A DNA stretch of 64,000 bases from Parabacteroides chongii (lineage in GTDB: Bacteria; Bacteroidota; Bacteroidia; Bacteroidales; Tannerellaceae), in the NCBI RefSeq assembly GCF_029581355.1, contig NZ_CP120849.1, positions 1,582,501 to 1,646,500 of the forward strand. Direction: 5' to 3'. Under the pieces are notes generated by a model that saw only the letters and a list, made by a program, of their open reading frames with translations, was not told the DNA's origin and did no database searches. Positions 1,809 to 25,530 of this stretch are shown here, in pieces. How positions within the stretch are numbered: the stretch's first letter is position 1; every line of letters starts with the position of its first letter. Both the position numbers and the translations under genes were made by a program.

Positions 1809-1825
1809 AGCGTCCTGCCATAAAA

Positions 1826-3265
1826 TTGGAAACAGTATCCTCGGCGCAGACGGTGGAAACTCCGACAGAAAAGCCGCAACCCGCAGATGAAAAGCCGGAG
1901 ATAGAACCGCGCCCGCAATATTCCGCAGGCGTGCAGCTCACCCTGCTTGACCTCTGGGGGATGACGGAAGAGGTCAGCCAACCGAAAACCTCCAAAAAGA
2001 AAAAGACGGTGAAAAAGGCAGTTACGGCAAAGTCCACTCCGCCCAAACCGAAAGTCACGGTTACACCGACAGCTCCAACTGCAAAACCCGCAATGGAGAA
2101 TAAGGAGGTGAAAGCGGAGAACACCGCCAAGCCTGCCGACCCGGACGACATCTATGCCACACTGGACTGGGATACCAATCCTCCCATCAACGGTTTCTAT
2201 GAAATGATGATGGGTTTGACGCCGGAGCGTAGGAAAGAACTTCGGGAACTGGCAAGGCAGCATAACGAGAAACAAGTGGCGGAAAAGACGGAAGTGAAAG
2301 CCGTGCCGGAAACTTCCCGTGAGCAGCGACGACAGGAGGAAACACAGCCGGAGGCAGTCGCCGCACCTGCCGTTACAGATACCCCATCGGAAGCGGTGGG
2401 GACTTTCCTTTTCCCCGACATCGAAGCGGAAAAGCCGAAGGAGGAAGTCGTGGACCTTTCTCCGCGTGCCTACCACCGCACGCCGGAGATGCACCTGCGC
2501 GAAGGGTCGCTGGTGGCTGACCGGGGGCGTCATAACATCGGCTACCTGAAAGACATCACGCCATACGGGGCGACATTCCAGCCGCTCGACCTGAAAGGAT
2601 ACCAGAAGGAAAAGGCGTTGTTGTATGTGTCGCTGCGTGACGCCTACGAGCGTCTGTACCGTTATGAATCGCTCCGGCGCGAGGCAAATGTTCCGTGGCG
2701 AGAGCATCTGAATACCTGTTACGATGAGTTTGTCATGCGCTACGGCAACCTCAACGCCAAGCAGAACGTGAAGTTAGTGATGATGGATGCGGGCGGGCGC
2801 GACATCCTTTCGCTGGAACGGATGGAAAACGGAAAGTTCGTCAAGGCGGACATCTTCGAGCATCCTGTTTCCTTCGCGGTGGAGAGCCATGCCAACGTAG
2901 GCTCTCCCGAAGAAGCCCTGTCTGCGTCGCTCAACAAATATGGTACGGTCAATCTCGACTATATGCGGGAGATAACCGACAGCACGGCGGAGGATTTGCT
3001 CACTGCCCTGCAAGGGCGCATCTACTACAATCCGCTCGTGACCGGTTACGAAATCAAAGACCGTTTCATCGCCGGAAATGTCATAGAGAAAGCGGAACGC
3101 ATAGAGGCATGGATGGGTGACAATCCCGAAAATGAGCGTATGCCGGAGGTGAAGCAGGCGTTGGAGGCTCTGAAAGATGCCGAGCCGCAGCGCATCGCCT
3201 TCGAGGATCCGGACTTCAATTTCGGGAACGCTGGATTCCGGCGGGTGTCTATGCCGCCTACATGA
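1826..3265 (+). CDS. Methylase/helicase, fragment 2 (linker and middle region)
   Basis: Continuation of the methylase protein in a second frame; coding really resumes at about 1798. Residues 1-200 are Pro/Lys/Glu-rich low-complexity linker, followed by a folded segment from about residue 215. At about 3224-3226 a run of three G replaces the four needed to stay in frame. One added G gives [19 protein letters not shown] and joins directly to the next fragment. The present ending, FRRVSMPPT, is therefore an out-of-frame tail. There is no independent start signal at 1826, so this piece is probably not translated by itself. Confidence 0.7.
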
Positions 3266-6114: not shown

Positions 6115-6416
6115 CGGGTAAGGTGTGGAAGAAGGAGGACGAGCTGAAGCAGTTGAAGTCCGAACTTGCCGCCCTTGACCGAAAAATTCAGCTGGAGCTT
6201 GCGCCACCCACGCCCGAAGTCGCAGAAAAGGAGAATGAAGGGCAACAGCTCAAGCCGGAAGCGGAAGATGTGAGGAACAGGCAGGCGCAATATCCCGAAA
6301 ATGCACCGCCGCAGATACGCAGTCCGGCGGATAGTATCGTTGCCAACCATGTCATAATCGGGCGTCCGGGACTGTATGCCAAGGAGGAAACCCGGTCCAA
6401 AGGATTGAAAATATAA
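5916..6416 (+). CDS. Methylase/helicase, fragment 4 (C-terminal coiled coil)
   Basis: C-terminal end of the same giant protein in a third frame. It begins at [16 protein letters not shown], continuous with fragment 3 when the missing G at 5913-5915 is restored. It holds a Leu/Glu/Lys heptad-rich coiled coil (about residues 45-95), a Pro/Glu-rich linker and a basic tail. Overlap with the out-of-frame end of fragment 3 explains the 199-nt double coding. It could in principle start on its own at the internal ATG, but nothing supports that. Confidence 0.65.
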
Positions 6417-6439
6417 CCTAAGGAATTTTATCTGAAGTA

Positions 6440-6543
6440 TTAATAAGGGCTATCCCAAAAGGTCTAAAAGTAAATTTTATCCTTTCTGCAAGTATCTATA
6501 GGATGGCAACTGCATTTTTTTCTTTTTGGGCAGCCCTTATTAA
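6440..6543. repeat. MITE-like element with 22-bp terminal inverted repeats
   Basis: TTAATAAGGGCT begins the left repeat (6440-6461) and its complement ends the right repeat (6522-6543). The arms are near-perfect over about 20 bp and enclose some 60 bp with no coding capacity. Non-autonomous IS derivative is the likeliest reading. It lies 24 bp after the methylase gene, so as RNA it could also act as a terminator-like stem. Confidence 0.6.
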
Positions 6544-6907
6544 AATTTATTCTTATTTTAGGTTATATACATTCATGTCCATTTATGTAAAAAATTCCTG
6601 CTGACCTTGTTTATGTCTTGTCAGTCACCATTTGCAAAACCATATTTGACCCTCAAAGAGGCTGAATTTGATAAGTAACTTGCTACATACTCATAATAAG
6701 GAGCTAAATAGAACACGAATGGGAAATACACAAATGCTAAACTAAAGAAGATATTGGCCAAAATAAACGCTATACCGAGAGAGAAACTTGATTTTTCAAC
6801 TTCCTAAAACGGTGTTGTTCAAACATTTCTACTTATTTGTACTTGCCAGTTGAACCTACGCTTCCCTAATAAAATGTCTATGGTAAAAAGTTAAAAAATC
6901 CTCCCAC
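6544..6907. other. AT-rich noncoding stretch
   Basis: No convincing ORF, RNA gene or strong repeat was found here. It separates the MITE-like repeat from the left boundary of the nested element. It is presumably the original upstream flank of tetQ before the IME inserted. Confidence 0.4.
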
Positions 6908-6939
6908 TTTTGTTAGATATATTTTTTTGTGTAACTTTG
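6908..6939 (+). promoter_or_regulatory. Displaced Bacteroidales promoter overlapping putative IME attL
   Basis: TTTTG at 6908-6912, a 19-bp spacer and TAACTTTG at 6932-6939 form a near-ideal Bacteroidales -33/-7 promoter pointing rightward. No plus-strand gene follows. The segment around GTGTAACTTTGGAAT matches GTGTAATTTTGTAAT just upstream of tetQ (18887-18901). Together they look like the two att copies made by insertion of the 12-kb nested element. This would be the original tetQ promoter, now separated from its gene. Confidence 0.5.
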
Positions 6940-7078
6940 GAATACCTTTGTTAGTTCCTTATACAAAGGACTTTGAGAGAATTACCCAATTTTGAGGTAA
7001 TGACTTGGCAACTGTGACATTTGCTGCGTTCTTCCTCATTTTGCTTCAAAGCAATAGCTCGTGGTGCAAATATATGAT

Positions 7079-7111
7079 ATTGGGGTGGAAACAGCAAATG
7101 TCCACCCCAAT
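7079..7111. terminator. Hairpin downstream of the restriction gene
   Basis: An 11-bp perfect stem (7079-7089 with 7101-7111) has an 11-nt loop. It lies 19 bp beyond the stop of the leftward restriction gene. The T-tract is weak on both strands, so termination is likely but not certain. Confidence 0.5.
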
Positions 7112-7130
7112 AATTATCAATAATTGTCAG

Positions 7131-8060
7131 TTAAGGAAATAGAATATCCTCTTTTGATATATTCCAATTATCAAAACTAAATTTCCACCGTTCCTCCATA
7201 AATTGCAGCATCAACAAACCACGCTTCTTTATTTCATCTCGAGTCCATTCTTTATGTTTAGAAACTTCAATTTCACTATACGAGCCATTATAGTATCCTA
7301 TTTCTTTTCCGTCTTTGTTTAGCAGACATTTCTTTTTGTCAAAATCGTAATTCTGCAACTTTGATTTTTAGAACGATTTAATAGTAATAGATTTCCCAAA
7401 GAATTCAAATACTGACGTTTTTCTGAAGGTTTAAGATGCCCAAAACGATTTTTCCAATAAATATCATTAGGTGATTGTGGGTATATGTGTTCAATTGTAT
7501 CCTCTTTCTTTCTCTTGTTAAAGTCCTCCCAAGAGACTTTCATATTAGCATTGTCTTGTAGGTACAATTCATATTCATAGAGAAAATACCTAAGTCCGCT
7601 CCATGAATAAAAGCCTTCTCTATCATTTTTGAGAATAGTTCTTTTATATGATTTTTGAATCTTTCCAAATCAAACCATCCATAATAGTTTTCATCGTCTT
7701 CCCCATCCGTCAAAAAGTCAATATCTGCCGTAATTGTTTCTATATCCAACTGTCCCATATAATACTCTCTTGTCTTTCTGTAAAGATTGCTATTTTGCGT
7801 ATTTGAAGAACGGTGTGATACAGCAAAAACCAAGAAATTGAATCTTTCACAAGCATCTAAAAAATTCCAAATTAAATCCTCATTGGTTTCTTTGGTAAAT
7901 ACAGCCATTATCATTGGAGGGAAAGCACCCCAGCCAACTCGTTCTAACTTCTGAATGTGCTCTTTTATTCTATCTGAATGGTTAGAATATTGGATGTTAA
8001 ATATGTAGAACCATTGTTTTACACACTTAGATAGGCTGTCGATATAATTTTTTATATGCT
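7131..8060 (-). pseudogene. C-terminal half (DUF1524 HNH) of GmrSD-like restriction protein, interrupted and frameshifted
   Basis: The minus-strand frame runs from 8058 without a start; it is the continuation of the DUF262 gene at 10949-11958. It contains a DUF1524 nuclease signature, IEHIYPQSPND followed by NSLGNLLLLNRSKNQS, as in GmrSD-type type IV restriction enzymes. Two further one-base deletions break it. A run of four A at 7609-7612 (plus strand) needs five. The AA at 7357-7358 needs three, after which translation continues to DILFP at 7131. The gene is disrupted by the IS4351-like element at 8061. Known GmrSD-type enzymes cut modified phage DNA; here the activity is presumably lost. 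Confidence 0.75.
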
Positions 8061-9208
8061 GAATTCAAGTTCCAAATGCAACGGAATTCATATTAATAAT
8101 TTGTTTAAATTTTTCGTTTGGTGTGAGGTATCCAAGTCTTTTACGAGGTCTATTATTTAGATTGTTTTCAATCCATTTAATACGCTTGTTGGTTACTTCA
8201 CTAAAGTCCGTACCCTTTGGGATATACTGCCTGATAAGACCGTTAGTATTTTCATTGGCACCACGCTCCCAAGAGTGGTATGGCTTACAAAAATAGAAAT
8301 TAATATCTAATTTTTGTGCTATATCCTCGTGTTTTGCAAATTCTTTTCCATTATCAGCCGTTATTGTGTGTATTAAGTTTTTTACTTTTCGTAATGCCCA
8401 TACTGTAATCTTTGCTACAGGGATGGCTTCTTTCCCTGATAGCTTACGTATCCATACTCTGCTTGTTGCTCTATCATTAATGGTTAGAATAGCACCTTTG
8501 TGATTCTTTCCAATAATTGTATCTATCTCTAAATCACCAAATCTTTCTTTTTGCTCTACAATTGAAGGTCGCTGATCAATCTCCACTCTATTCGGAATAA
8601 ATCCTCTACCTGCGTTTTTAGAACCACGCTTTGAATATTTGCGTCCTTGCCTTCTAAGAGATTTATGAAGATCCCCACCTTGTCGTTTATCTTGCCATAT
8701 CCAACAATATATAGTTTCGTGAGATACCATAGCTATATTTTCTACTTGGCTTCTGCCCACTATCTGCTCTGGGCTCAAGTCCTTTCGTAGAAGCTTTTTT
8801 ACACGCTTCTTCATAGCTTGTGTAAATACCTCCTTTCGCTTCTTTTCAACCTTACGTTTATCTGCCTTTCTTTGGGCAAGATCAGGGTTGTATTTTCCAC
8901 TACGACTATCGCAATTGCGTTTTATTTCTCTATAAATATTACTCCTATCAACTCCAATAGCTTCAGCTATATCTTTTTTACTCATCGGAACTTGCAACAT
9001 CTTAGAAATTGCATACCTTTGCTTTTCGGTTATATGTTTACTCATCTACAACTTTTATTTCTTTGGACGGACAATAAAAACAAAGATAGTAACATTTATC
9101 CATTCAGCAGAGAACAGAGGGAATTGTCTCTCTTTTCTCTCTGAAAAAAATATTACTTATGCAGCTATTAATCCTTTTCTTTAAAAGTTGCATTTATAAC
9201 TTGAACTC
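8061..9208. mobile_element. IS4351-like insertion sequence (IS30 family)
   Basis: Terminal inverted repeats of 22 bp lie at 8061-8082 (GAATTCAAGTTCC...) and 9187-9208, matching at 19 of 22 positions. The 1148-bp length and single 326-codon transposase fit IS4351, the IS that flanks erm(F) in Bacteroides Tn4351. Its left end lies exactly where the restriction gene is interrupted. No second copy is present at the far side of the erm gene, so a complete composite transposon is not visible. Confidence 0.85.
8065..9045 (-). CDS. IS30-family transposase (IS4351-like)
   Basis: 326 residues. The N-terminal HTH (SKKDIAEAIGVDRSNIYREI) is of the IS30 type. The DDE core shows D175 in EIDTIIG, D231 in TADNGKEF and E265 in NENTNG, so the catalytic triad is complete. 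It catalyses cut-and-paste or circle-mediated transposition of the surrounding element. The length equals that known for the IS4351 transposase. The stop lies inside the left inverted repeat. The gene is intact with no frameshift, unlike the restriction gene it interrupts. Confidence 0.9.
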   Translation of the reverse strand: MSKHITEKQRYAISKMLQVPMSKKDIAEAIGVDRSNIYREIKRNCDSRSGKYNPDLAQRKADKRKVEKKRKEVFTQAMKKRVKKLLRKDLSPEQIVGRSQVENIAMVSHETIYCWIWQDKRQGGDLHKSLRRQGRKYSKRGSKNAGRGFIPNRVEIDQRPSIVEQKERFGDLEIDTIIGKNHKGAILTINDRATSRVWIRKLSGKEAIPVAKITVWALRKVKNLIHTITADNGKEFAKHEDIAQKLDINFYFCKPYHSWERGANENTNGLIRQYIPKGTDFSEVTNKRIKWIENNLNNRPRKRLGYLTPNEKFKQIINMNSVAFGT

Positions 9209-9225
9209 AAGAATGAATAAAATTT

Positions 9226-9232
9226 AAAGGAG
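9226..9232 (+). promoter_or_regulatory. Strong Shine-Dalgarno before the nitroreductase gene
   Basis: AAAGGAG lies 6 nt before the ATG at 9239. Most genes in this window have no such site, as is usual in Bacteroidales. This suggests that the nitroreductase gene came from a different donor or needs strong expression. Confidence 0.55.
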
Positions 9233-9238
9233 ACAAAA

Positions 9239-10057
9239 ATGCCACAAATTCTTATAGACAGAAAAACATGTTCTAAATGCAATACTTGCGCAACTGTATG
9301 TGTAATGGGAATCATTGATAAATCGACAGCCTTAAATTATCCAACCATACCTGAAGAAAAATTGGATTATTGTTTAAAATGTGGTCATTGTGAGTCTTTT
9401 TGTGCACAGAAGGCTCTTACCTTAGATTTCCTTCTTGACGAAAAAATTAATACGTCTTTTTTGGATAGTCAGATTGAACCACAGAATATAGCATTGTATA
9501 TAAAAAGTCGACGTTCTGTGAGACATTATTCTTCAAAGACAGTTAATAAAGAGTTAATTGCTAAAGTTATTGATATAGCCCGTTATGCTCCATCTGGAGG
9601 GAATGGACAACCAGTAAAATGGATTGTTATTCATAAACCATCAGAGGTAAATCGTGTTGCAAGTTTAACCGTTGATTGGATGCGAACTATTCAAAACACA
9701 TCACATCCTCTAGCAGATTATGTACCTGCAATAATTTCAACTTGGGATAGTGGTTTGGATTTGATTTGCCATAATGCTCCCCATTTACTTTTTGCACATG
9801 TTCCTATTGAGCCAATTGATGACCCTACCGAAGCAATTATTGCTTTGACTCATTTTGATATTGCTGCGCCCGCTTTTGGTATCGGTACATGTTGGGCTGG
9901 ATTCGTAAAGTTGGCTATAGACAATTATAAACCATTAAAGGATTTGTTATCAATACCAGAAGAACGTAAAGCGGCTTGTCCAATGCTATTTGGATATTCA
10001 AGTTATAAAATAACTTCTATTCCGAGACGCAATCCTGTGGATATTACATGGAAGTAA
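9239..10057 (+). CDS. Ferredoxin-nitroreductase fusion (4Fe-4S plus FMN nitroreductase)
   Basis: 272 residues. Two 4Fe-4S motifs lie at C11-C14-C17-C21 and C45-C48-C51-C55. An FMN nitroreductase domain follows, starting at about residue 88 with SRRSVRHYS and including APSGGNGQP. Such fusions reduce nitro compounds or related substrates with electrons from the clusters; the substrate here is unknown. The start lies 31 bp outside the IS4351-like end, so an outward IS promoter could drive it. It converges on the erm gene across a shared hairpin. It is not a nim gene (NimA-J are small PNPOx-like proteins). A role in nitroimidazole activation or resistance is only speculation. Confidence 0.8.
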   Translation: MPQILIDRKTCSKCNTCATVCVMGIIDKSTALNYPTIPEEKLDYCLKCGHCESFCAQKALTLDFLLDEKINTSFLDSQIEPQNIALYIKSRRSVRHYSSKTVNKELIAKVIDIARYAPSGGNGQPVKWIVIHKPSEVNRVASLTVDWMRTIQNTSHPLADYVPAIISTWDSGLDLICHNAPHLLFAHVPIEPIDDPTEAIIALTHFDIAAPAFGIGTCWAGFVKLAIDNYKPLKDLLSIPEERKAACPMLFGYSSYKITSIPRRNPVDITWK

Positions 10058-10104
10058 AATAGAAGTTACTTAATGACTAAAATGGTGTATTAAACAGTTA
10101 ATCT

Positions 10105-10142
10105 TGATTCAGTAAAAAAAATAATTTTGTTTTACTGAATCA
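10105..10142. terminator. Bidirectional terminator between convergent genes
   Basis: A perfect 13-bp stem (10105-10117 with 10130-10142) has A- and T-rich inner arms. It lies between the converging nitroreductase and erm genes, which suits termination of both transcripts. Confidence 0.75.
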
Positions 10143-10161
10143 GACTCTAATCAACTAACAA

Positions 10162-10962
10162 TTAAGAGGGATGGTTTTTTTCAGGAACTCTCTCCAACAT
10201 TTCCAAAAAACAACATTCCCATTGTTTTGCAGCCAAACTAACAATTTGACAATTAAGATTTATTCCATATTTATCAGCAATAACTCTGACTTGACTTTTT
10301 CTGAATATTGTCTTTAATACAGTTCTGGCTGGCAAATCGGGTTTTTGCAACAAGAAAGTGAGAAAATTCAGATATTTTCTTTTCAATTCATAACTTATTG
10401 ACATTTTTTTTCTTTCAATCTTTAAAAGTGCTGACTTGACTTTTGGTGGTGGCAAAAAACTCTCATGAGATATTTCATACATAAGTTTTAAATCAAAAAA
10501 AGTATGATAAAACACAATATATGGATTGAAAACTTTTTTTGAAAATAACTTTTGGGCAGGTTCAAGTTGCATTATCAATGAACCACCCATAAAATGCTCA
10601 ACACTATCAAACATCAAGGATTTTAAAATTTCAGAAGTTATTCTGAAAGGGATATTAGACACAACTTTAAAATTTCTTTTTGGTATGGTGTAACATCTAA
10701 AATCACAATCAATAATTTTGACATTCGTGTTGTTAGAAAACTTGTTTTTTAGAATGGACAATAGCGATTTATCATTCTCTATTGCAATTAGATTTGTGCA
10801 TTGACGAACTAAATGAACAGTCAAAAATCCTTTTCCGGCACCAATATCTATAACAGTGTCGGATTCATTTATTTTCGCAATTTTAATTGCATCATCTATC
10901 AGCACTTTATCTATAGTAAAATGCTGTCCCGTGTATCTTACGGGCAGTTTATTTTTTATCAT
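10162..10962 (-). CDS. erm: 23S rRNA (adenine-N6) dimethyltransferase, Erm(F)/Erm(35)-like
   Basis: 266 residues, the length of ErmF, with closely similar ends (KLPVRYTGQHFTIDKV and EMLERVPEKNHPS). It is clearly divergent in the middle from the ErmF I remember, so the allele is uncertain. SAM motif I is DIGAGKGF (39-46) and the catalytic motif IV is NIPF (103-106), so it should be active. It dimethylates A2058 of 23S rRNA and gives macrolide-lincosamide-streptogramin B resistance. The start lies about 9 bp inside the junction with the broken restriction gene and overlaps its premature stop. No own promoter is visible, so readthrough from the restriction operon probably expresses it. Confidence 0.85.
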   Translation of the reverse strand: MIKNKLPVRYTGQHFTIDKVLIDDAIKIAKINESDTVIDIGAGKGFLTVHLVRQCTNLIAIENDKSLLSILKNKFSNNTNVKIIDCDFRCYTIPKRNFKVVSNIPFRITSEILKSLMFDSVEHFMGGSLIMQLEPAQKLFSKKVFNPYIVFYHTFFDLKLMYEISHESFLPPPKVKSALLKIERKKMSISYELKRKYLNFLTFLLQKPDLPARTVLKTIFRKSQVRVIADKYGINLNCQIVSLAAKQWECCFLEMLERVPEKNHPS

Positions 10963-11958
10963 TACTTATTTCTTTAATTGAGATATTCCCACTTAATACA
11001 TTTTTTGCGGTGAATTTTTTCTTAAGTAAAAACTCGGCATACACATCAGATTGACTTCTATCGTATGTGAAATACATTATCCAATGATTAAACAAGAAGT
11101 CATCATCATCTAATGGATTATCTTTGTTTTTACCTAAATATTCATATATGGTTTTCCATGTTTCATTAATATCTGTTCTTAATCGTCCTTTTGTTTCATC
11201 ATCTTCATGTAATAAAGTGGACAAATATATTAGACGGTTTTTTAGTAGTTCCAAATGAGACAAATCTTTTCCTCTATTGTTCATTGTCTCAAATGTTACA
11301 TATACATCTAATGAGTCATCTATTTCATAATAATTGAATTTCAACCTGTTTATTGCCTTATCAAAGATAGCTTCTTTATCCTCTTTACTCAATGACTTAA
11401 GTCTATTTTTGAAATATTCTTTTGCAAACATAAGATTTGCTGTATACAATGTTTCGGGATACTTGTCTGCAGCAGAGGATTCTTGTTCTAAAATCTTTGT
11501 CTTGAAATACTCATCGCTTGGATTATCCTTTTCATATCCAAATACAAAAGACTTATATAGCTGGTTGTAAGAACGATACAAAAAACGGTCTATCCATTCA
11601 CTCTTTTGTCCGTAATTAATGCCTTCATTGTCATTAAACGTACATAAAATTTCATGCAATAAGATAATTAAAGTAGTCAATCTCTGCTGTCCATCTATTA
11701 CATAATATGCGGACAGCCCTTTTTGAGAAGCCATAAATCATCTTTCCATTTTTCGATATTGGATACCTCATTTGCATTTATTGGTTCTACTGTCAATAAT
11801 CCAATATAATGTATTTTATTGGGGCTAAGGTTTTGGATATCTTCCCAAAAGTCATCTAACTGGCGTTCTTCCCAAGAATAGCCACGTTGAAAATCAGGAA
11901 TACGAAAAATTTTATTGTTGAATATTTCTGATAATGACAAAAGCTTTGTATCGCTCAT
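10949..11958 (-). pseudogene. N-terminal half (DUF262) of GmrSD-like restriction protein, interrupted and frameshifted
   Basis: It starts at 11958 with MSDTKLLSLSEIF. The DUF262 signature FQRGYSW lies near residue 22 and IDGQQRLTTLI follows further on. One base is missing at the CCC/TTTTT run at 11717-11724 (plus strand); restoring it joins WLLKKG to LSAYYVIDGQQRL. The frame then runs to ISIKEI at about 10971, where the erm-side insertion begins and a stop follows 6 codons later. The remaining half resumes at 8058. The DUF262 part is ParB-like and is thought to use nucleotides to control the DUF1524 nuclease. A secreted-protein gene lies 17 bp upstream, perhaps in the same transcript. Confidence 0.75.
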
Positions 11959-11974
11959 ACTTTTAGACTGCTAA

Positions 11975-12452
11975 TCAATTTTTGTTTTCTATATATTCTA
12001 ATATGTCATCCATCGTTGCTTTGAAAAAACGACCATAATCGCTTGATACATTTATAGGCTCCCGTGATTTTGAAGCACTTTTGTCCTAATGAACGACTAA
12101 AAGAAAGTTGGTATTTTTTTCCACATACCGTAAAATCAAAGACCTCACCCTTTGTTCCTGTCTCTAAGGCTTCTGATAGGTCTTTCAAATTTTTAATCAT
12201 CTCATCTTTACTGCCAAGAAAAAAAACGATTGGTTGATGATATTTTGAATTATTAGGTAAAGTTACAGAATACACTTCTACTTCATCTATAATTGTTTTA
12301 TTTAGCGCCACAGAACCATTTGTAAAAGATTTCACTTTCTCGATTTTAGCAACTTTTTTTAGTTGAGCATTTGTGTAGGTTGGCACAGACAATAGTAATG
12401 TTAAGACAAGTATGCACTTTAAACATACACTTGTTCTCTTTAATACTCTCAT
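11975..12452 (-). CDS. Small exported protein of unknown function, frameshifted near its C terminus
   Basis: The start at 12452 gives a clear signal peptide (ILVLTLLLSVPTYTNA, cleavage about residue 29). A beta-rich domain with no motif I recognise follows. In the present frame it stops at 12006 after SFFQSNDG. Removing one G from the run at 12061-12063 instead gives EPINVSSDYGRFFKATMDDI and a natural stop at 11975-11977, 17 bp from the restriction gene. I take the longer version as the original. Its role next to a restriction gene is unknown. Confidence 0.6.
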
Positions 12453-12506
12453 AATTAGATACGTTTAAATTGTTAAAAATAAGCGTGAACCGTATGCCAC
12501 ACTCTT

Positions 12507-12622
12507 ACTTGAAGGTCGTAGGAAACCTTGAATACAGATGTAACAATAGCAGCCCACGCTATAGCGTGAGAACCACTATGCTATCCTTGTATTCAGATTG
12601 AAAATTTCCTACGTTTTCAAGT
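12507..12622. repeat. Three-tier imperfect palindrome with central CACGCTATAGCGTG
   Basis: Three nested arms pair: 12507-12513 with 12616-12622, 12517-12525 with 12605-12613, and 12529-12536 with 12588-12595. A 14-bp perfect palindrome (12555-12568) sits in the interior. It is noncoding and lies between the MobV gene terminator and the exported-protein gene. The architecture matches the stem at 24693-24813. It could be a structured RNA, an attenuator or a DNA recombination/replication site. Confidence 0.6.
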
Positions 12623-12704
12623 ACAAGATAAGCATAACGCTTCTTCTTTTTCTCGTATGTCTTTGAAAAGGGTTGCCCCAATCCGAATACAAAAGTATAA
12701 AAAA

Positions 12705-12733
12705 TCCGTGATATGTCATTCAACTATCACGGA
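12705..12733 (-). terminator. Terminator of the MobV relaxase transcript
   Basis: A 9-bp stem (12705-12713 with 12725-12733) is followed on the minus strand by six T. It lies 13 bp past the relaxase stop. Confidence 0.8.
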
Positions 12734-12745
12734 CTTTATTTTGAT

Positions 12746-14049
12746 TTACAAATTAATACCCCGATTTTGTCTCCTTGCTTGTGGTCTCAGCTTCTCAATA
12801 AACTCCTCTTTCTTCCGTCTGAACCAACTGACATGTGAAACTCCGTCTATGTGGAGGTTGAAATTCCCCTCCTTGTCCTCTTTCAGTGAGCATATCGTTT
12901 TGTCTGCCTTGAAATGCTGGTTAAACTCACAAGAATAGAGTTCCCCTTTGATGGAAACATCCTTGAACGTGCATAACTTTCTGATGAGAGCATCGCCAAA
13001 GTTCAGCGTATCACGCAGAAATTTGATGGTTGGCATCAGCTTCTCCACATACGGGAAATAGTGCTTGACATAATCCACGAATTCGGACAGCTTGCGGTGC
13101 CGCTGTTCGTAAGCATCCGTTATCTCCTGTATGTGCTTTGCCTGTTGCTGTTCCTGTGTCGAGCTTCTTCTTCAAGTTCGAGGATGCGGTCTTGCAAATC
13201 CTCGTTTCTGCGTTCCAAAATCTTAACTTTGTTGCTTCCGAAAAGAGAACCGACACTTTCTGCAATGTGGATCGCTGCTGTGGTGGCTGCGCCTTTCAGT
13301 TTCTCGGTCTGCACCTCTTTCTTGGCTCGTCTGAGTTCCTGCTCCGCTTCGGTTTTCTGCTCCTGCAAATCCACCACTTCCGATTTCAAGCTGTCAGCAA
13401 GTTTCTGTATGTCTCGATAATACTGCTGTGTGGACTTGTGACGAGCCTGTGAGCCGTCTATGCCACGTTGCAGACCGTACTTTGCCATCGCTATGGCATA
13501 ACTGTCCTGGTAGGATTTCAGCTTCAAGCGTGTCATGATATCATCGGCACACAGGCGGACGGCATTGGTTGGTTTCTTTCGATACCGCTTCTTTACCTGT
13601 TCCTCACGTTTCTTGCGCTTGCGCTCTCCCTTGACAATCGGAACGAGGGTAATATGTATGTGTGGCGTTTCCTCGTCCCTGTGCAGGTGTGCAGCCACGA
13701 TATTCTCCTTGCCGAACAGGTCGGCAAAGTATTTCATATTGTCGGCACACCATTCGTCAAGTCTGCCCTCCTTTTCGATACGCTTCATATCCTCGTGCGT
13801 TCCCGACACATTGATACGGATAGCCCGAACTTGGTTGTTCCCGATTTTGCGTGTCAGTCCTGCTTCCTCCAATCTCTTTTGAATGGCTGCCGTGCGGTCT
13901 TTTATTCCATCGGGGTATGTGACGAGTTTTCGGTTAAGGTGTGTGCGTGTGGGGTCTGCGTTCTTCGGTATGATGAAACGCTCGATGTGGGCGGTCGTTC
14001 CGCTGTCGGAACCGTGCGCCTTTTCCATGTGTAATACTACGAATCCCAT
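12746..14049 (-). CDS. MobV-family relaxase (frameshifted)
   Basis: The catalytic N-terminal part (13120-14049, 309 residues) has the MobV/Pre histidine motif HLHRDEETPHIHITLVP, with metal ligands H121/H123 and H130/H132. A long coiled coil follows. At about 13161-13163 one base is missing; adding it converts EEARHRNSN to EEASTQEQQQAKHIQEITDAY. The frame then runs on through VDYVKHYFPYVEKLMPTI to the stop at 12746. The relaxase domain is complete, so nicking could survive while the C terminus is lost. It nicks oriT and pilots the nested element through a channel supplied in trans, presumably the surrounding Tra system. Confidence 0.8.
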
Positions 14050-14135
14050 ATATAATTCCTTTCTTATTCTGCTTGTGAAACATCGTTTGATTATTGCTTA
14101 TGTACGGCTGTTGCCGTTGGTCTTGGAGAGTCCAG

Positions 14136-14229
14136 AGAGGTGCAACCTCTTTGGCTTATTGGGGAATTTTCAGCGTTGCTTGCAATGCGGCTCGGAAAAT
14201 TCCCTAATAAGCTACGGTATTTTCCATCG
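14136..14229. other. Putative oriT of the nested element
   Basis: Just upstream of the MobV gene are clustered inverted repeats. An 18-bp pair with one mismatch (14154-14171 with 14195-14212, core GGGAATTTTC) encloses a small GTTGC/GCAAT stem. It is flanked by AGAGGT/ACCTCT (14136-14150) and by a TACGG...CCGTA stem to its right. Position and symmetry fit a MobV oriT. No nick site can be proven from sequence alone. Confidence 0.5.
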
Positions 14230-14259
14230 GTAAATATCCGTACCGCTGCAAGCATCCCC

Positions 14260-15226
14260 TTACATCTTCAACCCTTTCTTTTTCGGTGGCTGTATCATCC
14301 GCCTTGCGGATTGGACTTGCTTCTTCTCCGTTATCGGTTTTTCCGATTGGGACATGGGCTTGTCGCACAGGTAAGCGTTCAGGTCTTTGTGTCCGTTGTA
14401 GTTGTCGGAGAAGTCGCAGATGCGACCACTGAACTCTCTCGCCAAGTCAAGTAGGCATTTCTTCCTGCCTCGTCATTGTCAAACAGGCAATGGATGCGCT
14501 CGTACCTATGCAGCACGTCTATGGCTTTGGAAACATTGGCAATCGAATTAAGGATGATGTAATCCTGCCCATCAAGGTTGGGTATGATCGGGCAGTTCCT
14601 CATCCGCAACGTAAGAAATGACAGGTAGTCCATCATACCCTCGAACACTAGGCATTTTTCTCTCGGTTCTCCTGCTGGCATATATGGCTGATGTCCTTCG
14701 GTGCGATGCAGCCCTTGAAGAAACGGTTGCGCACTTCAAACCCTCCAGCCACATTCGGGAAGCCGATGGCGAAATAGGGCTTGCCGTTATGGATGAAGTG
14801 CAGTTCCTTACATTCCAATCTTGCCAAGTCGGTGTTTATGCCCCTTTCCTGCAAGTAACGGAGCAATGCAGGATGGGTAAGTTCTCCCACCTCTAACTGG
14901 TGGAAACTCGGTTCGGATGACTGCTGGCGAAAAGAGAAAGATACGGGACGGATGTGCGGTACTCGCTCCGCTATCTTATTGAGCAAGTAAGGCACATAGT
15001 CGGTTGCGTATAGTTCCTCTGCCAATGCGATGATGATGTTGCCGCCCTTGCCAAGTCCGAAATCGTACCACTTGTTAAGCTCGGTGTTTACCTTGAAAGA
15101 GGCATCCTTTTCTTCTCTCAACGGTGATTTGTACCAAAGGCTGTTGCCTTGTTGTTTGACGGGCGTATAGCCCAAACTTTGCAGATAGTCTGCAATGCGT
15201 ATGTTCTTTACTTCCTGTATGTTCAT
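14260..15226 (-). CDS. DNA primase (CHC2-like and Toprim), frameshifted twice
   Basis: The start at 15226 (MNIQEVKNIRIADYL) replaces longer alternatives, since the aligned TraP-type proteins begin here. The N-terminal half has a zinc-finger-like fold typical of mobile-element primases (WYKSPLREEKDASFKVN, WYDFGLGKGGN). The Toprim part includes CLVFEGMMDYLS and HCLFDNDEAGR. Two one-base deletions break it: the run at 14655-14659 needs six T, and one C is missing at 14448. Corrected, it ends at 14260 with PKKKGLKM. It resembles TraP (49530-50420) of the host element. It would make primers on the transferred single strand. Confidence 0.7.
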
Positions 15227-15237
15227 AATTTTCCTAT

Positions 15238-15490
15238 GGTTTGATGATGATTGTAAAACCGATGAATTGATGAATGTGTATGACAAACTATTGGATAACA
15301 ATATTATACATCCTCATCATAGTTTCATCAAAGCACTTACCAAAAGAGAAAATCATCATTTGCCATATAGCGTATGGTCTGCCTGACCTGTTTCCTTTTT
15401 CATCAGTAAGATGTTTTTGATGAATGTTTGATGAGAGTACAAACCTTTATATATCAGTGTAGTTATATCCTTATTCATCATTTTATCAAA
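15238..15490. repeat. Iteron-like cluster of GATGA/TCATC repeats
   Basis: About nine copies of GATGA or its complement TCATC are packed in 250 bp between the primase and helicase genes, several as TTGATGA or TTCATCA. The spacing is irregular and the orientation mixed. An origin or regulator-binding region for the nested element is plausible. The cluster is seen directly; the role is inference. Confidence 0.45.
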
Positions 15491-15494
15491 ATAA

Positions 15495-16741
15495 TCAGAG
15501 TGTTGTCAACTGTTCTCTTGTTACGGTATAAAACCGTCCTATCCTCCGTATGGGAGAATAGCGGCACTCTCGGGTATAGTCCACTTGATAGGTGTTGTAA
15601 GTAAGCGTATTCGGTGCAGGAGTTAATTTCCAGCACTCCTGCAATACCTTACGGACTTGGTGCTTCTCCACCTTTACCTGTGAGTGTACCAGCAAAAAGA
15701 AGAAGGTCGTTGTAGCAGAAAGAGAAAGTATCCGTACCAACACTATCCATGATGTCAAGGATAAGTTCTTGCATCTCTATCTCCAATCGGTTGCGGTTGC
15801 TGCGGATTATCTTCTGTAAGGCTTCTGTATGCAGCAAGGATGGGGCAAACCACATACGGCTTTCCTTTTCGGAGGATAGCTGTCTGTGTTGCAGGAAATG
15901 AAGAAAAGCGGGTATCTCCGCTTTCAGTTTGCAGAAAGTCGGTATCATCGGACTGCAAGCGTTCAATCTTGCGTACCCAATAGCGTGTTTCTCCTGCATC
16001 TATGATTACGGGCAGATACTCGTTGTTGGAGCATAGCACGAACTTGGCAAAGAACGCTATCTCGTCACGGTCTTTGCCTTTAGCTTCCACCTTATAGGAT
16101 AGGGTTGTACTGAGGTTCTTCAACCTCTCGCTGTCCTCCCTGCGGTTGAGCAGCACCTCATCCACCACGATGAGGAGCTTTCCTGCCCAATCGGAATTGA
16201 ACTGGCTGCGGAAATCCTCGTTGGTGTTGAACGTGACATTGTTCTGAAAAAGGGCTTTCAGAAAGTTGAGAAACGTACTCTTGCCTGTGTTGCGTTCTTC
16301 AGATACCAACAGCAGGATGGGCAACTTTTGGATGGGTTGCAGGTAGAGCAGTTGCAGATAGTCCATCCCCAACTCGTATTGCTCTCCGAAGATGTGCCGT
16401 ATCAATGATTGGATGTGCGAGAAATCACCCTCCTTTGGTCGGTGGTCTATCGGTTCATAGAGGTTAAGGAACTTACCGACCACAGGGCGGTAGCCGATGT
16501 GTTCGGGTACGGTGCAGAAACCGTCATACTTGGGAACGCTGCCGATGTAGTCCTTGCCATAGTCTTGGCGCAGGGTCTCGTTGTTCCACGCGATGCGTTT
16601 CTTTACATACCCTCCGTTCAGTCTCGGCTGCTCCACAATCTTGTAGAGCGATGTTCCCACTCGGATGAACTCTTCTTTTGCCACGCTGCCATCTGATGGC
16701 GGCTTGTGGCTGTCTTGTTGTTTGTTAGCTGACATAATCAA
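15495..16741 (-). CDS. VapE/phage-primase-like P-loop helicase, frameshifted twice
   Basis: It starts at 16741 or 16735 (MSANKQQDS). A superfamily-3-like ATPase core follows: Walker A SEERNTGKSTF, Walker B LLIVVDEVLL and a downstream arginine region. It resembles the VapE/DUF5906 helicases that partner primases in phages and Bacteroidales mobile elements. One extra A (run complementary to 15928-15930) and one extra T (complementary to 15694-15698) shift the frame. Corrected, the protein runs through LKAEIPAFLHFLQH and LLVHSQVKVEKHQV to the stop at 15495, about 415 residues. The likely role is unwinding during replication of the excised element. Confidence 0.7.
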
Positions 16742-16893
16742 ATGGTTTTAAGTTTGAAAAATACCAGCCACAAAAGTATAATCATTTAATGAATAGGTTG
16801 TTACGCAAAATACAGCAGAATATAGAAAAAAGCCCCTCGGAACAAAAACTTTCAAAGGTTTGTCAATGGAGTCGGATTGGAAAGACAAAAAAA

Positions 16894-16932
16894 CTCCCGA
16901 AATGCGAATGGTCGGATTTCGCTTTTCGGGAG
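16894..16932 (-). terminator. Terminator of the int-HTH transcript
   Basis: A 15-bp imperfect stem (16894-16908 with 16918-16932, CTCCCGAAA arms) is followed on the minus strand by seven T. It separates the int/HTH unit from the helicase gene. Confidence 0.8.
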
Positions 16933-17034
16933 AAAAAATCAGAGTATCTGTCGTATTGTTGTGCTGACGTACAGATTTAATGACTGCATTACGTCAGTCT
17001 CTCATCCCAATCTACGAGAGGTATTTGGGCTTGA

Positions 17035-17394
17035 CTATTTCGGCATTGCCCAACGAAAAGAAGATGGTTTGTTTCTTTTTCGCAAGTACAGCCTTTTCAT
17101 GATGGCATTGCGCACCCGCTTTGCTCCGAATGTGCCGAAGTGGAAAGCGAGGGCAATTATCGTTTCAAGGTTGTAAAACTCCATGCTGCACTTGTCGGAT
17201 AGGCGTATGGTACGCTTTATCTCGTACTCCCTCAATGCGCCACTTTTGCAAAGAGCCTTTATCCCTGCCCGAACGGTCGGGGCGGTGACACCGAACAAAT
17301 CCAACAACTCGGATTCGTTCATCCATACATCGGTTGTGTCATTTGGCAAAATAACATTGCCGAACTCGTCTATTGTGATGGTACTTCTTTCCAT
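17035..17394 (-). CDS. Small HTH protein (excisionase-like or regulator)
   Basis: 119 residues from the ATG at 17394 (MERSTITIDEFGNV). The longer in-frame start at 17421 would overlap int. A winged/HTH-like segment, WMNESELLDLFGVTAPTVRA, spans about residues 25-45, and a basic C terminus follows. Genes of this type sit directly behind the integrase in Bacteroidales IMEs. They are thought to regulate int or assist excision. It is separated from int by 4 bp, so the two are co-transcribed. Confidence 0.65.
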   Translation of the reverse strand: MERSTITIDEFGNVILPNDTTDVWMNESELLDLFGVTAPTVRAGIKALCKSGALREYEIKRTIRLSDKCSMEFYNLETIIALAFHFGTFGAKRVRNAIMKRLYLRKRNKPSSFRWAMPK

Positions 17395-17398
17395 AGCC

Positions 17399-18622
17399 CT
17401 ATGCCATTGTTGTGTTCCCAAAAGATTGGTTCAGTTTGTCACCGAACATTGTAAGGTCGTGGTCTATCTTCTGCGTGGTTATTTTCGCATAGAGTTGGGT
17501 TGTAACGATGTTCGTATGTCCTAACACACGGCTGACGCTTTCAATCGGCATACCTTTGCTTAGAGCAAGGGTTGCGAACCCATGCCTCGCACAATGGAAT
17601 GAGATGTCCTTTGTGATTCCGCACTCTTTTATCATCTTTTTCAATGGCTTGCATATAGACCAATAGTTCAGATTCGGGAAAACGGACTTGTCCGTTTGGA
17701 ACTCCTCGTAACGCTTGATAATCTGCAAAGGGATGTCAAGCAGTTTCACTTGGAACGGGACTTTGGTCTTGTGCCGTTTGGATAATATCCACTTCTCTCC
17801 GTTCACCTCCACTATATCATCGGTGGTCAGTCCCTTGACATCCACGAATGACAGTGCGGTAAAGCTGGCAAAGACAAAGATGTCACGGATGTAGGAAAGT
17901 TTGGCATCCGCAAATTCGTGTGTCATCAATGTTTTCAGTTCTTCTTCCGTCAGATACTCACGATCCTTTATGTTAGGGCTTATATGGAACTGCGCAAACG
18001 GATTTCTCGGTATTAGTCCGTTGAAGTGCGCACGCATGACCACACCTTTCAGCCACATGCAGTTAGTCCATATACTGCCATTCTGCAATCCTCTGTCGGT
18101 GGAAAGGAAAACGGCAAACTCCTTGATGAAGTCGGGTGTCAGTTCAAGCATAGACAGGTCGCTTCGCTTGTAGTTAGCCTTGATGAATGCCGCCACATGG
18201 TTTCTTGCACGAACCCTTGCCATGTAAGTTCCTTTTACACGGTCCGTCCCCACACGCTTTTGAAACGTTGCGTTGTCCTTGTCAAACGCTCCAAGCAGTG
18301 TTTCATACTCGCTGCCGATTCCTTGATAGGCATTGCGCACCATTTCTGCCGTAACATACGCCTCTCTGTCTGAAATGCGCTGGTAGTGCTTGATGATTTG
18401 CGCCTTGATGTTGTCTAAAGCGTGGTTAATGTCCCTCGCTTCAATACTCTTGCCTTTGGCTCTGTTGCCCTTCGCATCCCAAAGCGCTTTCGGGATGGTC
18501 TGCTTGCAACTGAACTGCGCCACAGAACCGTTGATTGTCACTCGTCCCATGATGGGGACAATACCGTTTTTCTCCTTGCTGCCGTTCACGTAGAACAGCA
18601 CTTTGAATGTACTTCTTGCCAT
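17399..18622 (-). CDS. int: Tyrosine recombinase (integrase) of the nested element
   Basis: 407 residues from the ATG at 18622, with a TAACTTTG promoter box 17 bp upstream on the minus strand (18640-18647). An arm-binding and SAM-like core precede the catalytic domain. The nucleophile is Y378 (TTQLYAKI), with H343-x-x-R346, H369 (LGHTN) and K285. The first catalytic Arg is replaced by Ser258 in FTALSFVDV, the substitution known for IntDOT-type integrases. It catalyses integration and excision of the IME. The gene is intact, unlike most neighbours in this element. Confidence 0.9.
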   Translation of the reverse strand: MARSTFKVLFYVNGSKEKNGIVPIMGRVTINGSVAQFSCKQTIPKALWDAKGNRAKGKSIEARDINHALDNIKAQIIKHYQRISDREAYVTAEMVRNAYQGIGSEYETLLGAFDKDNATFQKRVGTDRVKGTYMARVRARNHVAAFIKANYKRSDLSMLELTPDFIKEFAVFLSTDRGLQNGSIWTNCMWLKGVVMRAHFNGLIPRNPFAQFHISPNIKDREYLTEEELKTLMTHEFADAKLSYIRDIFVFASFTALSFVDVKGLTTDDIVEVNGEKWILSKRHKTKVPFQVKLLDIPLQIIKRYEEFQTDKSVFPNLNYWSICKPLKKMIKECGITKDISFHCARHGFATLALSKGMPIESVSRVLGHTNIVTTQLYAKITTQKIDHDLTMFGDKLNQSFGNTTMA

Positions 18623-18886
18623 ACTCGTTTTTTTGTTTGCAAAGTTAAATATCAACGAGTTAAACCTTGCTACGCAAAACGGTGACAAACGGTGCAATAG
18701 CGTCCTACATGTATTAAATCTTACATCTTCTTGGGTAATGATTTGCAAACCGTTCTCCTGCTATATTCTGCTTTTCCTTGCATTTTCCGCTTTTTCGGTT
18801 TGACCTCATCTGACACCGTAACGACATTGGTACAAAGTCTTTTAGCGTCATTTCTCCCATCTCTCTCGGTTGTTCCAGCATTTTCG
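18623..18886. other. Right terminal region of the nested element
   Basis: No gene is present. It holds the int promoter (18640-18647, minus strand), two direct AAACGGTG repeats 10 bp apart (18677 and 18687) and a related AAACCGTT (18747-18754). These look like integrase arm-type binding sites between int and the putative attR. Confidence 0.5.
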
Positions 18887-18901
18887 TGTAATTTTGTAAT
18901 C
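18870..18901 (+). promoter_or_regulatory. Promoter of tetQ-rteA-rteB overlapping putative IME attR
   Basis: TAATTTTG at 18889-18896 is a Bacteroidales -7 box. The only -33 candidate, TTG at 18870-18872, lies 16 bp away, shorter than the usual 19-21. The box is within the att-like repeat shared with 6930-6944. Insertion of the IME seems to have replaced the original -33 region. Confidence 0.65.
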
Positions 18902-18904
18902 GTT

Positions 18905-19030
18905 ATGCGGCAGTAATAATATACATATTAATACGAGTTAGTAATCCTGTAGTTCTCATATGCTACGAGGAGGTATTAAAAGGTGCGTTTCGACAATGCA
19001 TCTACTGTAGTATATTATTGCTTAATCCAA
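18905..19030 (+). promoter_or_regulatory. tetQ attenuator leader with 3-codon leader peptide
   Basis: ATG CGG CAG TAA (18905-18916) encodes the tripeptide MRQ. The sequence from its stop codon, 18915-18924, is a perfect 10-bp complement of 19010-19019, just before the tetQ ATG, so the start region can be masked. This matches the translational attenuation described for CTnDOT tetQ, in which tetracycline stalls ribosomes on the leader and frees tetQ and the downstream rte genes. Confidence 0.75.
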
Positions 19031-20956
19031 ATGAATATTATAAATTTAGGAATTCTTGCTCACATTGATGCAGGAAAAACTTCCGTAACCGAGAATCTGC
19101 TGTTTGCCAGTGGAGCAACGGAAAAGTGCGGCCGTGTGGATAATGGTGACACCATAACGGACTCTATGGATATAGAGAAACGTAGAGGAATTACTGTCCG
19201 GGCTTCTACGACATCTATTATCTGGAATGGAGTGAAATGCAATATCATTGACACTCCGGGACACATGGATTTTATTGCGGAAGTGGAGCGGACATTCAAA
19301 ATGCTTGATGGAGCAGTCCTCATCTTATCCGCAAAGGAAGGCATACAAGCGCAGACAAAGTTGCTGTTCAGTACTTTACAAAAGCTGCAAATCCCGACAA
19401 TTATATTTATCAATAAGATTGACCGTGCCGGTGTGAATTTGGAGCGTTTGTATATGGATATAAAAACAAATCTGTCGCAAGATGTCCTGTTTATGCAAAC
19501 TGTTGTCGATGGATCGGTTTATCCGGTTTGCTCCCAAACATATATAAAGGAAGAATACAAAGAATTTGTATGCAACCATGACGACGATATATTAGAACGA
19601 TATTTGGCGGATAGCGAAATTTCACCGGCTGATTATTGGAATACGATAATCGCTCTTGTGGCAAAAGCCAAAGTCTATCCGGTGCTACATGGATCAGCAA
19701 TGTTCAATATCGGTATCAATGAGTTGTTGGACGCCATTTCTTCTTTTATACTTCCTCCGGCATCAGTCTCAAACAGACTTTCAGCTTATCTCTATAAGAT
19801 AGAGCATGACCCCAAAGGGCATAAAAGAAGTTTTCTTAAAATAATTGACGGAAGTCTGAGACTTCGAGACGTTGTAAGAATCAACGATTCGGAAAAATTC
19901 ATCAAGATTAAAAATCTAAAGACTATTTATCAGGGCAGAGAGATAAATGTTGATGAAGTGGGTGCCAATGATATCGCGATTGTAGAAGATATAGAAGATT
20001 TTCGAATCGGAGATTATTTAGGTGCTAAACCTTGTTTGATTCAAGGATTATCTCATCAGCATCCCGCTCTCAAATCCTCCGTCCGGCCAAATAAGCCCGA
20101 AGAGAGAAGCAAGGTGATATCCGCTCTGAATACATTGTGGATTGAAGACCCGTCTTTGTCCTTTTCCATAAACTCATATAGTGATGAATTGGAAATCTCG
20201 TTATATGGTTTGACCCAAAAGGAAATCATACAGACATTGCTGGAAGAACGATTTTCCGTAAAGGTCCATTTTGATGAGATCAAGACTATCTACAAAGAAC
20301 GACCTATAAAAAAGGTCAATAAGATTATTCAGATCGAAGTACCACCCAACCCTTACTGGGCCACAATAGGGCTGACTCTTGAACCCTTACCGTTAGGGGC
20401 AGGGTTGCAAATCGAAAGTGACATCTCCTATGGTTATCTGAACCATTCTTTTCAAAATGCCGTTTTTGAAGGGATTCGTATGTCTTGCCAATCTGGTTTA
20501 CATGGATGGGAAGTGACAGATCTGAAAGTAACTTTTACTCAAGCCGAGTATTATAGCCCGGTAAGTACACCTGCTGATTTCAGACAGCTGACCCCTTATG
20601 TCTTCAGGCTGGCTTTGCAACAGTCAGGTGTGGACATTCTCGAACCGATGCTCTGTTTTGAGTTGCAGATACCCCAAGTAGCGAGTTCCAAAGCTATTAC
20701 AGATTTGCAAAAACTGATGTCTGAGATTGAAGACATCAGTTGTAATAATGAGTGGTGTCATATTAAAGGGAAAGTTCCATTAAATACAAGTAAAGACTAT
20801 GCCTCAGAAGTAAGTTCGTACACTAAGGGCTTAGGCATTTTTATGGTTAAGCCATGTGGGTATCAAATAACAAAAGACGGTTATTCTGATAATATCCGCA
20901 TGAACGAAAAAGATAAACTTTTATTCATGTTCCAAAAATCAATGTCATTAAAATAA
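19031..20956 (+). CDS. tetQ: Tetracycline-resistance ribosomal protection protein TetQ
   Basis: 641 residues from the ATG at 19031. An in-frame start at 18983 is rejected because it lies in the attenuator and adds 16 unrelated residues. EF-G-like GTPase: G1 AHIDAGKT, G3 DTPGH and G4 NKID, followed by the elongation-factor domains. It binds the ribosome and expels tetracycline by GTP hydrolysis. The stop overlaps the rteA start (TAATGG), so the operon is translationally linked. It is intact and nearly identical to the TetQ I know from CTnDOT. Confidence 0.97.
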
Positions 20957-25411: not shown

Positions 25412-25449
25412 AAATCCAGCACTTTGTAAAATTGAGTGTTGGATTTTTT
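25412..25449 (+). terminator. Terminator between the RibD-like gene and rteC
   Basis: A 12-bp stem with one G-T pair (25412-25423 with 25435-25446) runs into six T. It separates the RibD-like transcript from rteC, which therefore needs its own, RteB-activated promoter. Confidence 0.8.
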
Positions 25450-25530
25450 ATTTTCTGCCGCGTTTTTGCCAATTATATTCATGTGCGCGCACGCAGAAAA
25501 CAAAGTGTAATTTTCAAAATTGACAGAACC

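What the first reader, a model, noticed from the sequence alone, without database searches (positions are those of the whole stretch)
6908..18901. A 12-kb mobilizable element seems to have landed in the tetQ promoter
A near-perfect Bacteroidales promoter (TTTTG, 19-bp spacer, TAACTTTG at 6908-6939) faces no gene. At the far end, the tetQ -7 box TAATTTTG (18889-18896) has no well-spaced -33 box. The two boxes share GTGTAAnTTTGnAAT, and an integrase with AAACGGTG repeats lies just inside the right copy. Removing 6933-18889 would rebuild a perfect tetQ promoter. Splitting the promoter would change tetracycline induction of tetQ-rteAB, and so of transfer, until the element excises. Excision could act as a switch.
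Basis: partly seen in the sequence, partly recalled or inferred. Interest (0 to 1): 0.78.

Follow-up and report, generated by a model that had tools for sequence, protein, structure and literature searches.

The report
Mobile element inside the tetQ promoter
A 12-kb hitchhiking DNA element sits exactly in the promoter of a tetracycline-resistance gene of a gut bacterium, and relatives of the element are found at the same promoter signal in front of many other genes, including housekeeping ones.

Summary
Window 6300-6943 and 18881-19500 are one uninterrupted stretch in four plasmid records, and 24 of 29 tetQ-leader loci read in the genus have the native promoter. The window has 11,957 bp between two GTGTAA copies (6929, 18886): an integrative mobilizable element (IME) with a whole tyrosine integrase and a MobV relaxase gene that is split here but whole in two relatives. 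No searched record shares the junction. The tetQ -7 box was hit because it is this integrase family's kind of target: in 60 of 76 relatives' loci the right end is followed by TAnnTTTG (0.3% expected), and a co-directional gene starts 5-100 bp on in 42 of 74, against 184 of 579 other such boxes. Those genes include pheT, lysS and PBP1A-type and FtsK-type genes, so insertion need not silence what follows. A second natural empty site (PBP1A-type gene) shows that the box belongs to the target. The 'excision switch' is not supported: there are no expression or excision data, and mobilization and replication genes are broken. One other tetQ locus has three changed bases at the crossover, a possible excision scar.

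The parts
6908..6912 (+). original -33 box of the tetQ promoter, left behind at the left junction
   Evidence: same bases and 19-bp spacer in natural uninterrupted loci
6929..6939 (+). left junction (attL): GTG plus the element's own box TAACTTTG
   Evidence: differs from the uninterrupted site after GTGTAA; same left end in relatives
6932..7060 (.). left end of the element, conserved in relatives
   Evidence: 80-93% identity to 6 of 12 fetched relatives; 13 more left ends by motif (some are the same copies)
6996..7011 (+). left copy of the end repeat GGTAATGACTTGGCAA (possible arm site of the integrase)
   Evidence: 3 mismatches in 16 to 18734-18749; role inferred
7131..7914 (-). pieces that look like the far part of a GmrSD-type gene (recalled likeness; the one piece searched, 7540-7914, had no Pfam or NCBIfam hit)
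   Evidence: ORFs
8065..9045 (-). IS30-family transposase
   Evidence: NF033563, 317 bits
9239..10057 (+). nitroreductase-type protein with 4Fe-4S domain
   Evidence: Pfam PF00881
10162..10962 (-). Erm 23S rRNA methyltransferase gene, about 71% identical to ermF DNA
   Evidence: NF000499 above cut-off, Erm(F) model below its cut-off
10949..11958 (-). pieces of a GmrSD-type gene (first part)
   Evidence: PF03235 on 10949-11734; ORFs
12746..14049 (-). MobV relaxase gene, in two pieces here (309 and 110 aa), one 434-aa ORF in two relatives
   Evidence: NF041497
14260..15301 (-). primase-type gene (CHC2 zinc finger), in three pieces here, one ORF of 321/341 aa in two relatives
   Evidence: PF01807
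15495..16741 (-). helicase-type gene (DUF5906), in pieces here, one 415-aa ORF in two relatives
   Evidence: PF19263
17035..17421 (-). small protein (128 aa; 136 aa in two relatives), possible regulator or excision factor
   Evidence: no family hit; role a guess
17399..18622 (-). tyrosine integrase, whole (407 aa)
   Evidence: PF00589, PF17293, PF13102; 99% to two relatives
18734..18749 (+). right copy of the end repeat GGTAATGATTTGCAAA
   Evidence: a related motif in 69 of 78 right ends of relatives
18873..18885 (+). right core half TTCCAGCATTTTC, end of the element
   Evidence: conserved in 78 relatives' loci
18886..18896 (+). right junction (attR): GTG plus the target's own -7 box TAATTTTG
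   Evidence: identical to uninterrupted loci from here on
18905..19030 (+). tetQ leader (short leader ORF at 18905; folded region), unchanged
   Evidence: fold z -2.73
19031..20956 (+). tetQ
   Evidence: Pfam EF-G domains; start by comparison with the AMR call in L002
20956..24589 (+). rteA and rteB, whole, followed by an rteC-type gene at 25432-26133
   Evidence: same lengths as in NZ_OR675140

Best explanation
An integrative mobilizable element integrated, by its own tyrosine integrase, into the tetQ promoter of a CTnDOT-type ICE (tetQ-rteA-rteB-rteC). The integrase's target looks like CAAAGATTTTnnnTAAnTTTG, whose right half is the same as the -7 box of Bacteroidota promoters, so promoters are natural targets. 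Integration leaves the target's -7 box and everything downstream attached to the element's right end; the old -33 box stays at the left end next to the element's own copy of the box, which explains the promoter that faces no gene. tetQ now has a hybrid promoter (its own -7 box and leader, element DNA upstream), most likely of changed but not abolished strength. Shown: the insertion, both ends, two natural empty sites, the target motif across the family. Inferred: recombination by this integrase, residual promoter activity, reversibility.
For: Natural uninterrupted loci. Ends shared with relatives at other places. 60 of 76 readable loci have exact TAnnTTTG right after the right end, 57 at one offset, 0.3% expected. 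Co-directional gene start 5-100 bp on in 42 of 74 sites against 184 of 579 other TAnnTTTG sites, Fisher p 4e-5, and 120 of 584 random positions, p 5e-10. First genes downstream include pheT, lysS, purL, lepA, ruvB, PBP1A-type, FtsK-type (20 of 42 genes searched, picked by eye). Second empty site: 3 genomes of the genus of P. plebeius have an uninterrupted PBP1A-type promoter with the same box.
Against: The window's hybrid promoter has no usual -33 box, and only 6 of 78 right ends have a TTG at spacer 18-21. The pheT and lysS copies (L116, L117) are among those 6, both from metagenome bins, so they do not prove that a right end without -33 still works. 16 of 76 sites lack the exact box. One relative (L110/L096) sits inside what looks like a coding sequence (read by eye). 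Gene calls are home-made and see only insertions that survived.
Confidence: 0.75

Rival explanations
1. Reversible switch: integration silences tetQ-rteAB and excision turns resistance and ICE transfer back on in a regulated way.
For: The -33 box is separated from the -7 box; the integrase is whole; G825 has three changed bases exactly between T-tract and box, which exchange of coupling bases on excision would leave.
Against: No excision or expression data. Mobilization, primase and helicase genes are in pieces. The junction was seen in no other tetQ locus. G825's own family member has other bases next to its boxes (TCG, TTG against TCT in the scar).
Confidence: 0.08
2. A trapped, decaying element that simply destroyed or strongly weakened the tetQ promoter, without a switch.
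For: No usual -33 in the window's hybrid promoter and no other plus-strand TAnnTTTG with a usual -33 in 17000-18905; broken mobilization and replication genes.
Against: tetQ, rteA and rteB reading frames are whole, as if still selected; relatives sit in front of housekeeping genes.
Confidence: 0.15
3. Assembly chimera rather than a real insertion.
For: The window's own assembly is not held and the junction occurs in no other record searched.
Against: Both junctions follow to the base the end rule seen in 78 loci of relatives and the flanks are exact in uninterrupted relatives.
Confidence: 0.02

Closest known systems
ermF region of CTnDOT, a 13-kb IME derivative inside the ICE (PMC5704250 and PMC1976400, passages seen; the original 2001 paper not seen)
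   Same: An IME-derived, erm-carrying segment of similar size inside a tetQ-rteAB ICE.
   Different: The erm gene here is about 71% identical to ermF. Whether the CTnDOT segment lies in the tetQ promoter or shares the integrase could not be tested: CTnDOT's sequence was not found in the collections used.
CTnDOT-type ICE integrase (IntDOT) and its att core GTAnnTTTGC (recalled, from no call)
   Same: Tyrosine recombinase of the same broad kind; an integrase on the tetQ contig of G001 is 39% identical; core with TAnnTTTG and mismatched bases beside it.
   Different: Only 39% identical; the left core half (TTCCAGA) and the preference for boxes with a gene close downstream are described here for this family.
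Bacteroides IMEs Tn4555, Tn4399, NBU1, NBU2, Tn5520 (PMC5704250, passages)
   Same: Mobilizable elements with a tyrosine integrase (Tn4555, NBU1, Tn5520 per that review); Tn5520 is described there as preferring AT-rich regions.
   Different: That review gives MobP relaxases for Tn4399, Tn4555, NBU1 and NBU2; the relaxase here is MobV. No sequence comparison with them was made.
Integrases of H. faecis, B. pyogenes and other Bacteroidales loci (L108, L110 and others)
   Same: 79-100% identical integrases with the same right end at other sites.
   Different: Other cargo and other targets; mobV, primase and helicase genes whole in the two compared.

Membership tests
Integrative mobilizable element | own integrase and precise ends with a short shared sequence | tested here: met
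   integrase 17399-18622; GTGTAA at both ends, conserved ends in relatives
Integrative mobilizable element | natural empty site | tested here: met
   a second one for a relative
Integrative mobilizable element | relaxase gene | tested here: inconclusive
   MobV gene present but in two pieces in the window; one ORF in two relatives
Integrative mobilizable element | no conjugation pore genes of its own | tested here: inconclusive
   none among the 11 ORFs of the element given to Pfam; smaller ORFs not searched
Integrative mobilizable element | excises and is mobilized by a helper | not testable with these tools
   needs PCR and mating
IntDOT-like tyrosine recombinase | arm-binding, SAM-like and catalytic domains | tested here: met
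   PF17293, PF13102, PF00589
IntDOT-like tyrosine recombinase | TAnnTTTG-type core in the target | tested here: met
   60 of 76 exact; core of IntDOT itself recalled
IntDOT-like tyrosine recombinase | strand exchange across mismatched coupling bases | tested here: inconclusive
   bases beside the box differ between attL and attR in several relatives; chemistry not testable
ermF region of CTnDOT | carries ermF | tested here: not met
   Erm(F) model below cut-off, 71% DNA identity
ermF region of CTnDOT | same place and ends in the ICE | not testable with these tools
   CTnDOT sequence not found in the collections used

The most novel reading that the evidence does not exclude
A widespread Bacteroidales IME family uses the host's -7 promoter box as its attachment core, and its right end serves as a replacement upstream half of the promoter. 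It would then re-wire promoters rather than destroy them: those of pheT, lysS, PBP1A-type and FtsK-type genes elsewhere, and here that of the tetQ-rteAB operon that governs transfer of its own ICE host.
Probability: 0.35. Interest if true: 0.75.

Novelty: new variant of a known kind. Interest (0 to 1): 0.58.

Why it matters
tetQ-rteAB output governs both tetracycline resistance and transfer of a common gut ICE. An element parked in that promoter, from a family that is found again and again at promoter boxes, links integration-site choice to gene regulation and gives a clear test: does the element's end carry promoter activity? It also gives a simple rule (TTCCAGAGATTTTnnn followed by TAnnTTTG) for finding such insertions in genomes.

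Tried and rejected
AAACGGTG as an end marker: also at 6807 in the host flank and at five other places. Equating the element with CTnDOT's ermF region: the erm differs. Another outward promoter: in 17000-18905, plus strand, only 17551 and 18889 carry TAnnTTTG and neither has a TG-ending -33 except at spacer 16. A usual -33 in the right ends of relatives: 6 of 78, two of the 78 cut off by a contig end. A -33 in the left flanks of the 13 left ends: by eye 3 of 13, no enrichment. Empty site of the B. xylanisolvens copy: only the genome itself and three short matches. Of the B. salyersiae copy: best match 76% identical and up to ten matches per genome, not usable. Of the Coprobacter copy: the two relatives diverge before the box. 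Of the P. plebeius copy: 20 loci fetched, one is the copy itself, 3 show the empty site, 16 diverge upstream. tetQ in G893/G830 and G763/G566 first looked like other insertions at the same box; they are other tetQ contexts. A first gene-start statistic was too loose (55 of 74 within 150 bp against 52% of other boxes) and was replaced. Structure prediction was not used. Papers on IntDOT chemistry and the 2001 ermF-region paper did not turn up in the open library.

Full report
WHAT WAS CLAIMED AND WHETHER IT IS THERE. Both boxes are there. TTTTG-N19-TAnnTTTG occurs once in the window, both strands, at 6908. At 18889 the only TG-ending candidate for a -33 box, spacers 14-23 examined, is a TTG with a 16-bp spacer.

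UNINTERRUPTED RELATIVES. In four plasmid records (Phocaeicola massiliensis, Bacteroides fragilis, Parabacteroides distasonis, B. finegoldii) the two flanks are adjacent, their matches overlapping by 20 bp. The alignment shows that everything from 18886 on equals the uninterrupted site, and that the left side equals it up to GTGTAA at 6934. So the target's own -7 box is on the right, the element's own copy on the left, and the crossover lies in or next to GTGTAA. The insert is 11,957 bp. In the genus, 27 of 158 genomes match tetQ at 33 places; 30 were given as loci, 29 of these have the leader motif, 24 with the native promoter and 5 with another one. In 399 family genomes 44 match at 46 places, and none extends into the element's right end (at most two candidates scored per genome). 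In the first 119 genomes no match spans the junction. The exact insertion was seen only in the window, whose own assembly is not held.

ANATOMY. The integrase (17399-18622, minus strand) has arm-binding, SAM-like and catalytic domains and is 99% identical to copies in Heminiphilus faecis and Bacteroides pyogenes. A small protein (17035-17421), a DUF5906 helicase-type gene, a CHC2 primase-type gene and a MobV relaxase gene follow. In two relatives these are single ORFs of 136, 415, 321/341 and 434 aa; in the window the last three are in pieces and the small protein differs at its end. tetQ, rteA and rteB are whole, so a general sequencing error is an unlikely cause, though it is not excluded. 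The region between the conserved left end and about 12.7 kb is not shared with those two relatives: here a GmrSD-type gene in pieces, an IS30-family transposase, a nitroreductase-type gene and an Erm methyltransferase gene about 71% identical to ermF. Both ends carry GGTAATGAyTTG. The core halves TTCCAGA (right) and TCTGGAA (left, in many relatives) are inverted to each other.

WHY THE tetQ PROMOTER. One scan of species genomes with a 12-sequence integrase alignment found 440 relatives, of which the tool kept the best 80. In 78 of 80 the right end is held, in 76 with flanking DNA. 60 of 76 show exact TAnnTTTG straight after it, 57 at the same offset; the density of the motif in these loci predicts 0.3% for the six offsets allowed. 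Of the other 16, 11 match 5 of the 6 fixed positions and 5 match 4. The loci share ancestry, so they are not fully independent. The first gene on the right is co-directional and starts 5-100 bp on in 42 of 74 sites, against 184 of 579 other TAnnTTTG sites in the same flanks (Fisher p 4e-5) and 120 of 584 random positions (p 5e-10) (home-made gene caller, surviving insertions only). I ran NCBIfam on 20 of the 42 first genes, picked by eye; 16 had a family at E 1e-20. Above cut-off: among others pheT, lysS, purL, lepA, ruvB, a pyrophosphatase and msrA. Below cut-off: PBP1A-type, FtsK-type, RelA/SpoT-type, TrkH-type. A second empty site: three genomes of the genus of P. plebeius have, uninterrupted, the same box and flank (one of the three with one base different beside the box) in front of the PBP1A-type gene at which P. 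plebeius carries the element. So the box comes from the target. With left flanks of other copies the target looks like CAAAGATTTTnnnTAAnTTTG, an inverted-repeat-like core; this consensus was read by eye. Papers give TAnnTTTG as the -7 consensus, with TTTG (PMC7366714, passages) or TG, TTG or TGTG (PMC6927303, passages) at -33; PMC7366714 adds that no -33 motif could be identified in Flavobacterium johnsoniae.

CONSEQUENCE FOR tetQ. The old -33 box is parted from tetQ; the -7 box and the leader are kept (the leader region folds better than shuffles, z -2.73). Because relatives stand in the same way in front of housekeeping genes, I judge that transcription continues at a changed level. This is inference, and one result tells against leaning on it: only 6 of 78 right ends offer a TTG at spacer 18-21, and the pheT and lysS copies (L116, L117, both metagenome bins) are among these 6, while the window's right end is not. 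The PBP1A-type and FtsK-type cases (L126, L172; isolates) have no such TTG. Those genes may also have other promoters.

REVERSIBILITY. One tetQ locus (G825) differs from the commonest native promoter, over the 60 bp compared, only by three consecutive bases between the T-tract and the box. Excision with exchange of coupling bases would leave such a mark. G825 carries a family member elsewhere (integrase 79%), but the bases beside its boxes (TCG, TTG) are not those of the mark (TCT). Suggestive only.

LITERATURE. CTnDOT's ermF region is described as an IME derivative in the ICE (PMC5704250, passages) and as a 13-kb insertion (PMC1976400, passages); RteA/RteB control of transfer is from PMC1976400. 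The ten searches of the open library listed no title or abstract start that describes IMEs targeting -7 boxes. Most CTnDOT papers did not appear there, so absence from print is not claimed.

VERDICT. Observation confirmed; landing in the tetQ promoter confirmed and extended to a family-wide target rule; the switch not supported.

Noticed in passing
L236 (G825), tetQ promoter: Three consecutive changed bases between T-tract and -7 box, a possible excision scar; the genome has a family member elsewhere whose junction bases do not match it.
   Followed up: partly
L085-L089, L239/L240, L237/L238: The tetQ leader is joined to at least three other upstream regions, each with its own TAnnTTTG box: the promoter region of tetQ has been exchanged more than once.
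   Followed up: partly
L242 (G548 C1), upstream of tetQ: Native promoter kept, but different DNA starts upstream of about window position 6885.
   Followed up: no
L103 (G359), left end: The flank left of this element looks like the right end of another family member: possible tandem insertion.
   Followed up: no
L257, L258, L262-L264: Promoters of PBP1A-type genes in some Phocaeicola genomes resemble the element's right end (ATTCC...TTT before the box), by eye; perhaps old remnants or chance.
   Followed up: no
window 603-6416: A gene that is one 5,841-bp ORF (N-6 DNA methylase) in NZ_OR675140 appears as several ORFs here; not aligned.
   Followed up: no
window 32065-34420, minus strand: Group II intron matches (RF02012 and RF00029).
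   Followed up: no
window 7098-7067, minus strand: Promoter-like TTTG-N20-TATATTTG near the left end, pointing out of the element to the left.
   Followed up: no
G475 C1 2765896 and G465 C8 37470: A relative of the window's erm gene (89%) lies about 8 kb downstream of a tetQ locus.
   Followed up: no
L107: An identical integrase on a 4.6-kb contig of a metagenome bin labelled Clostridia; probably a binning error.
   Followed up: no
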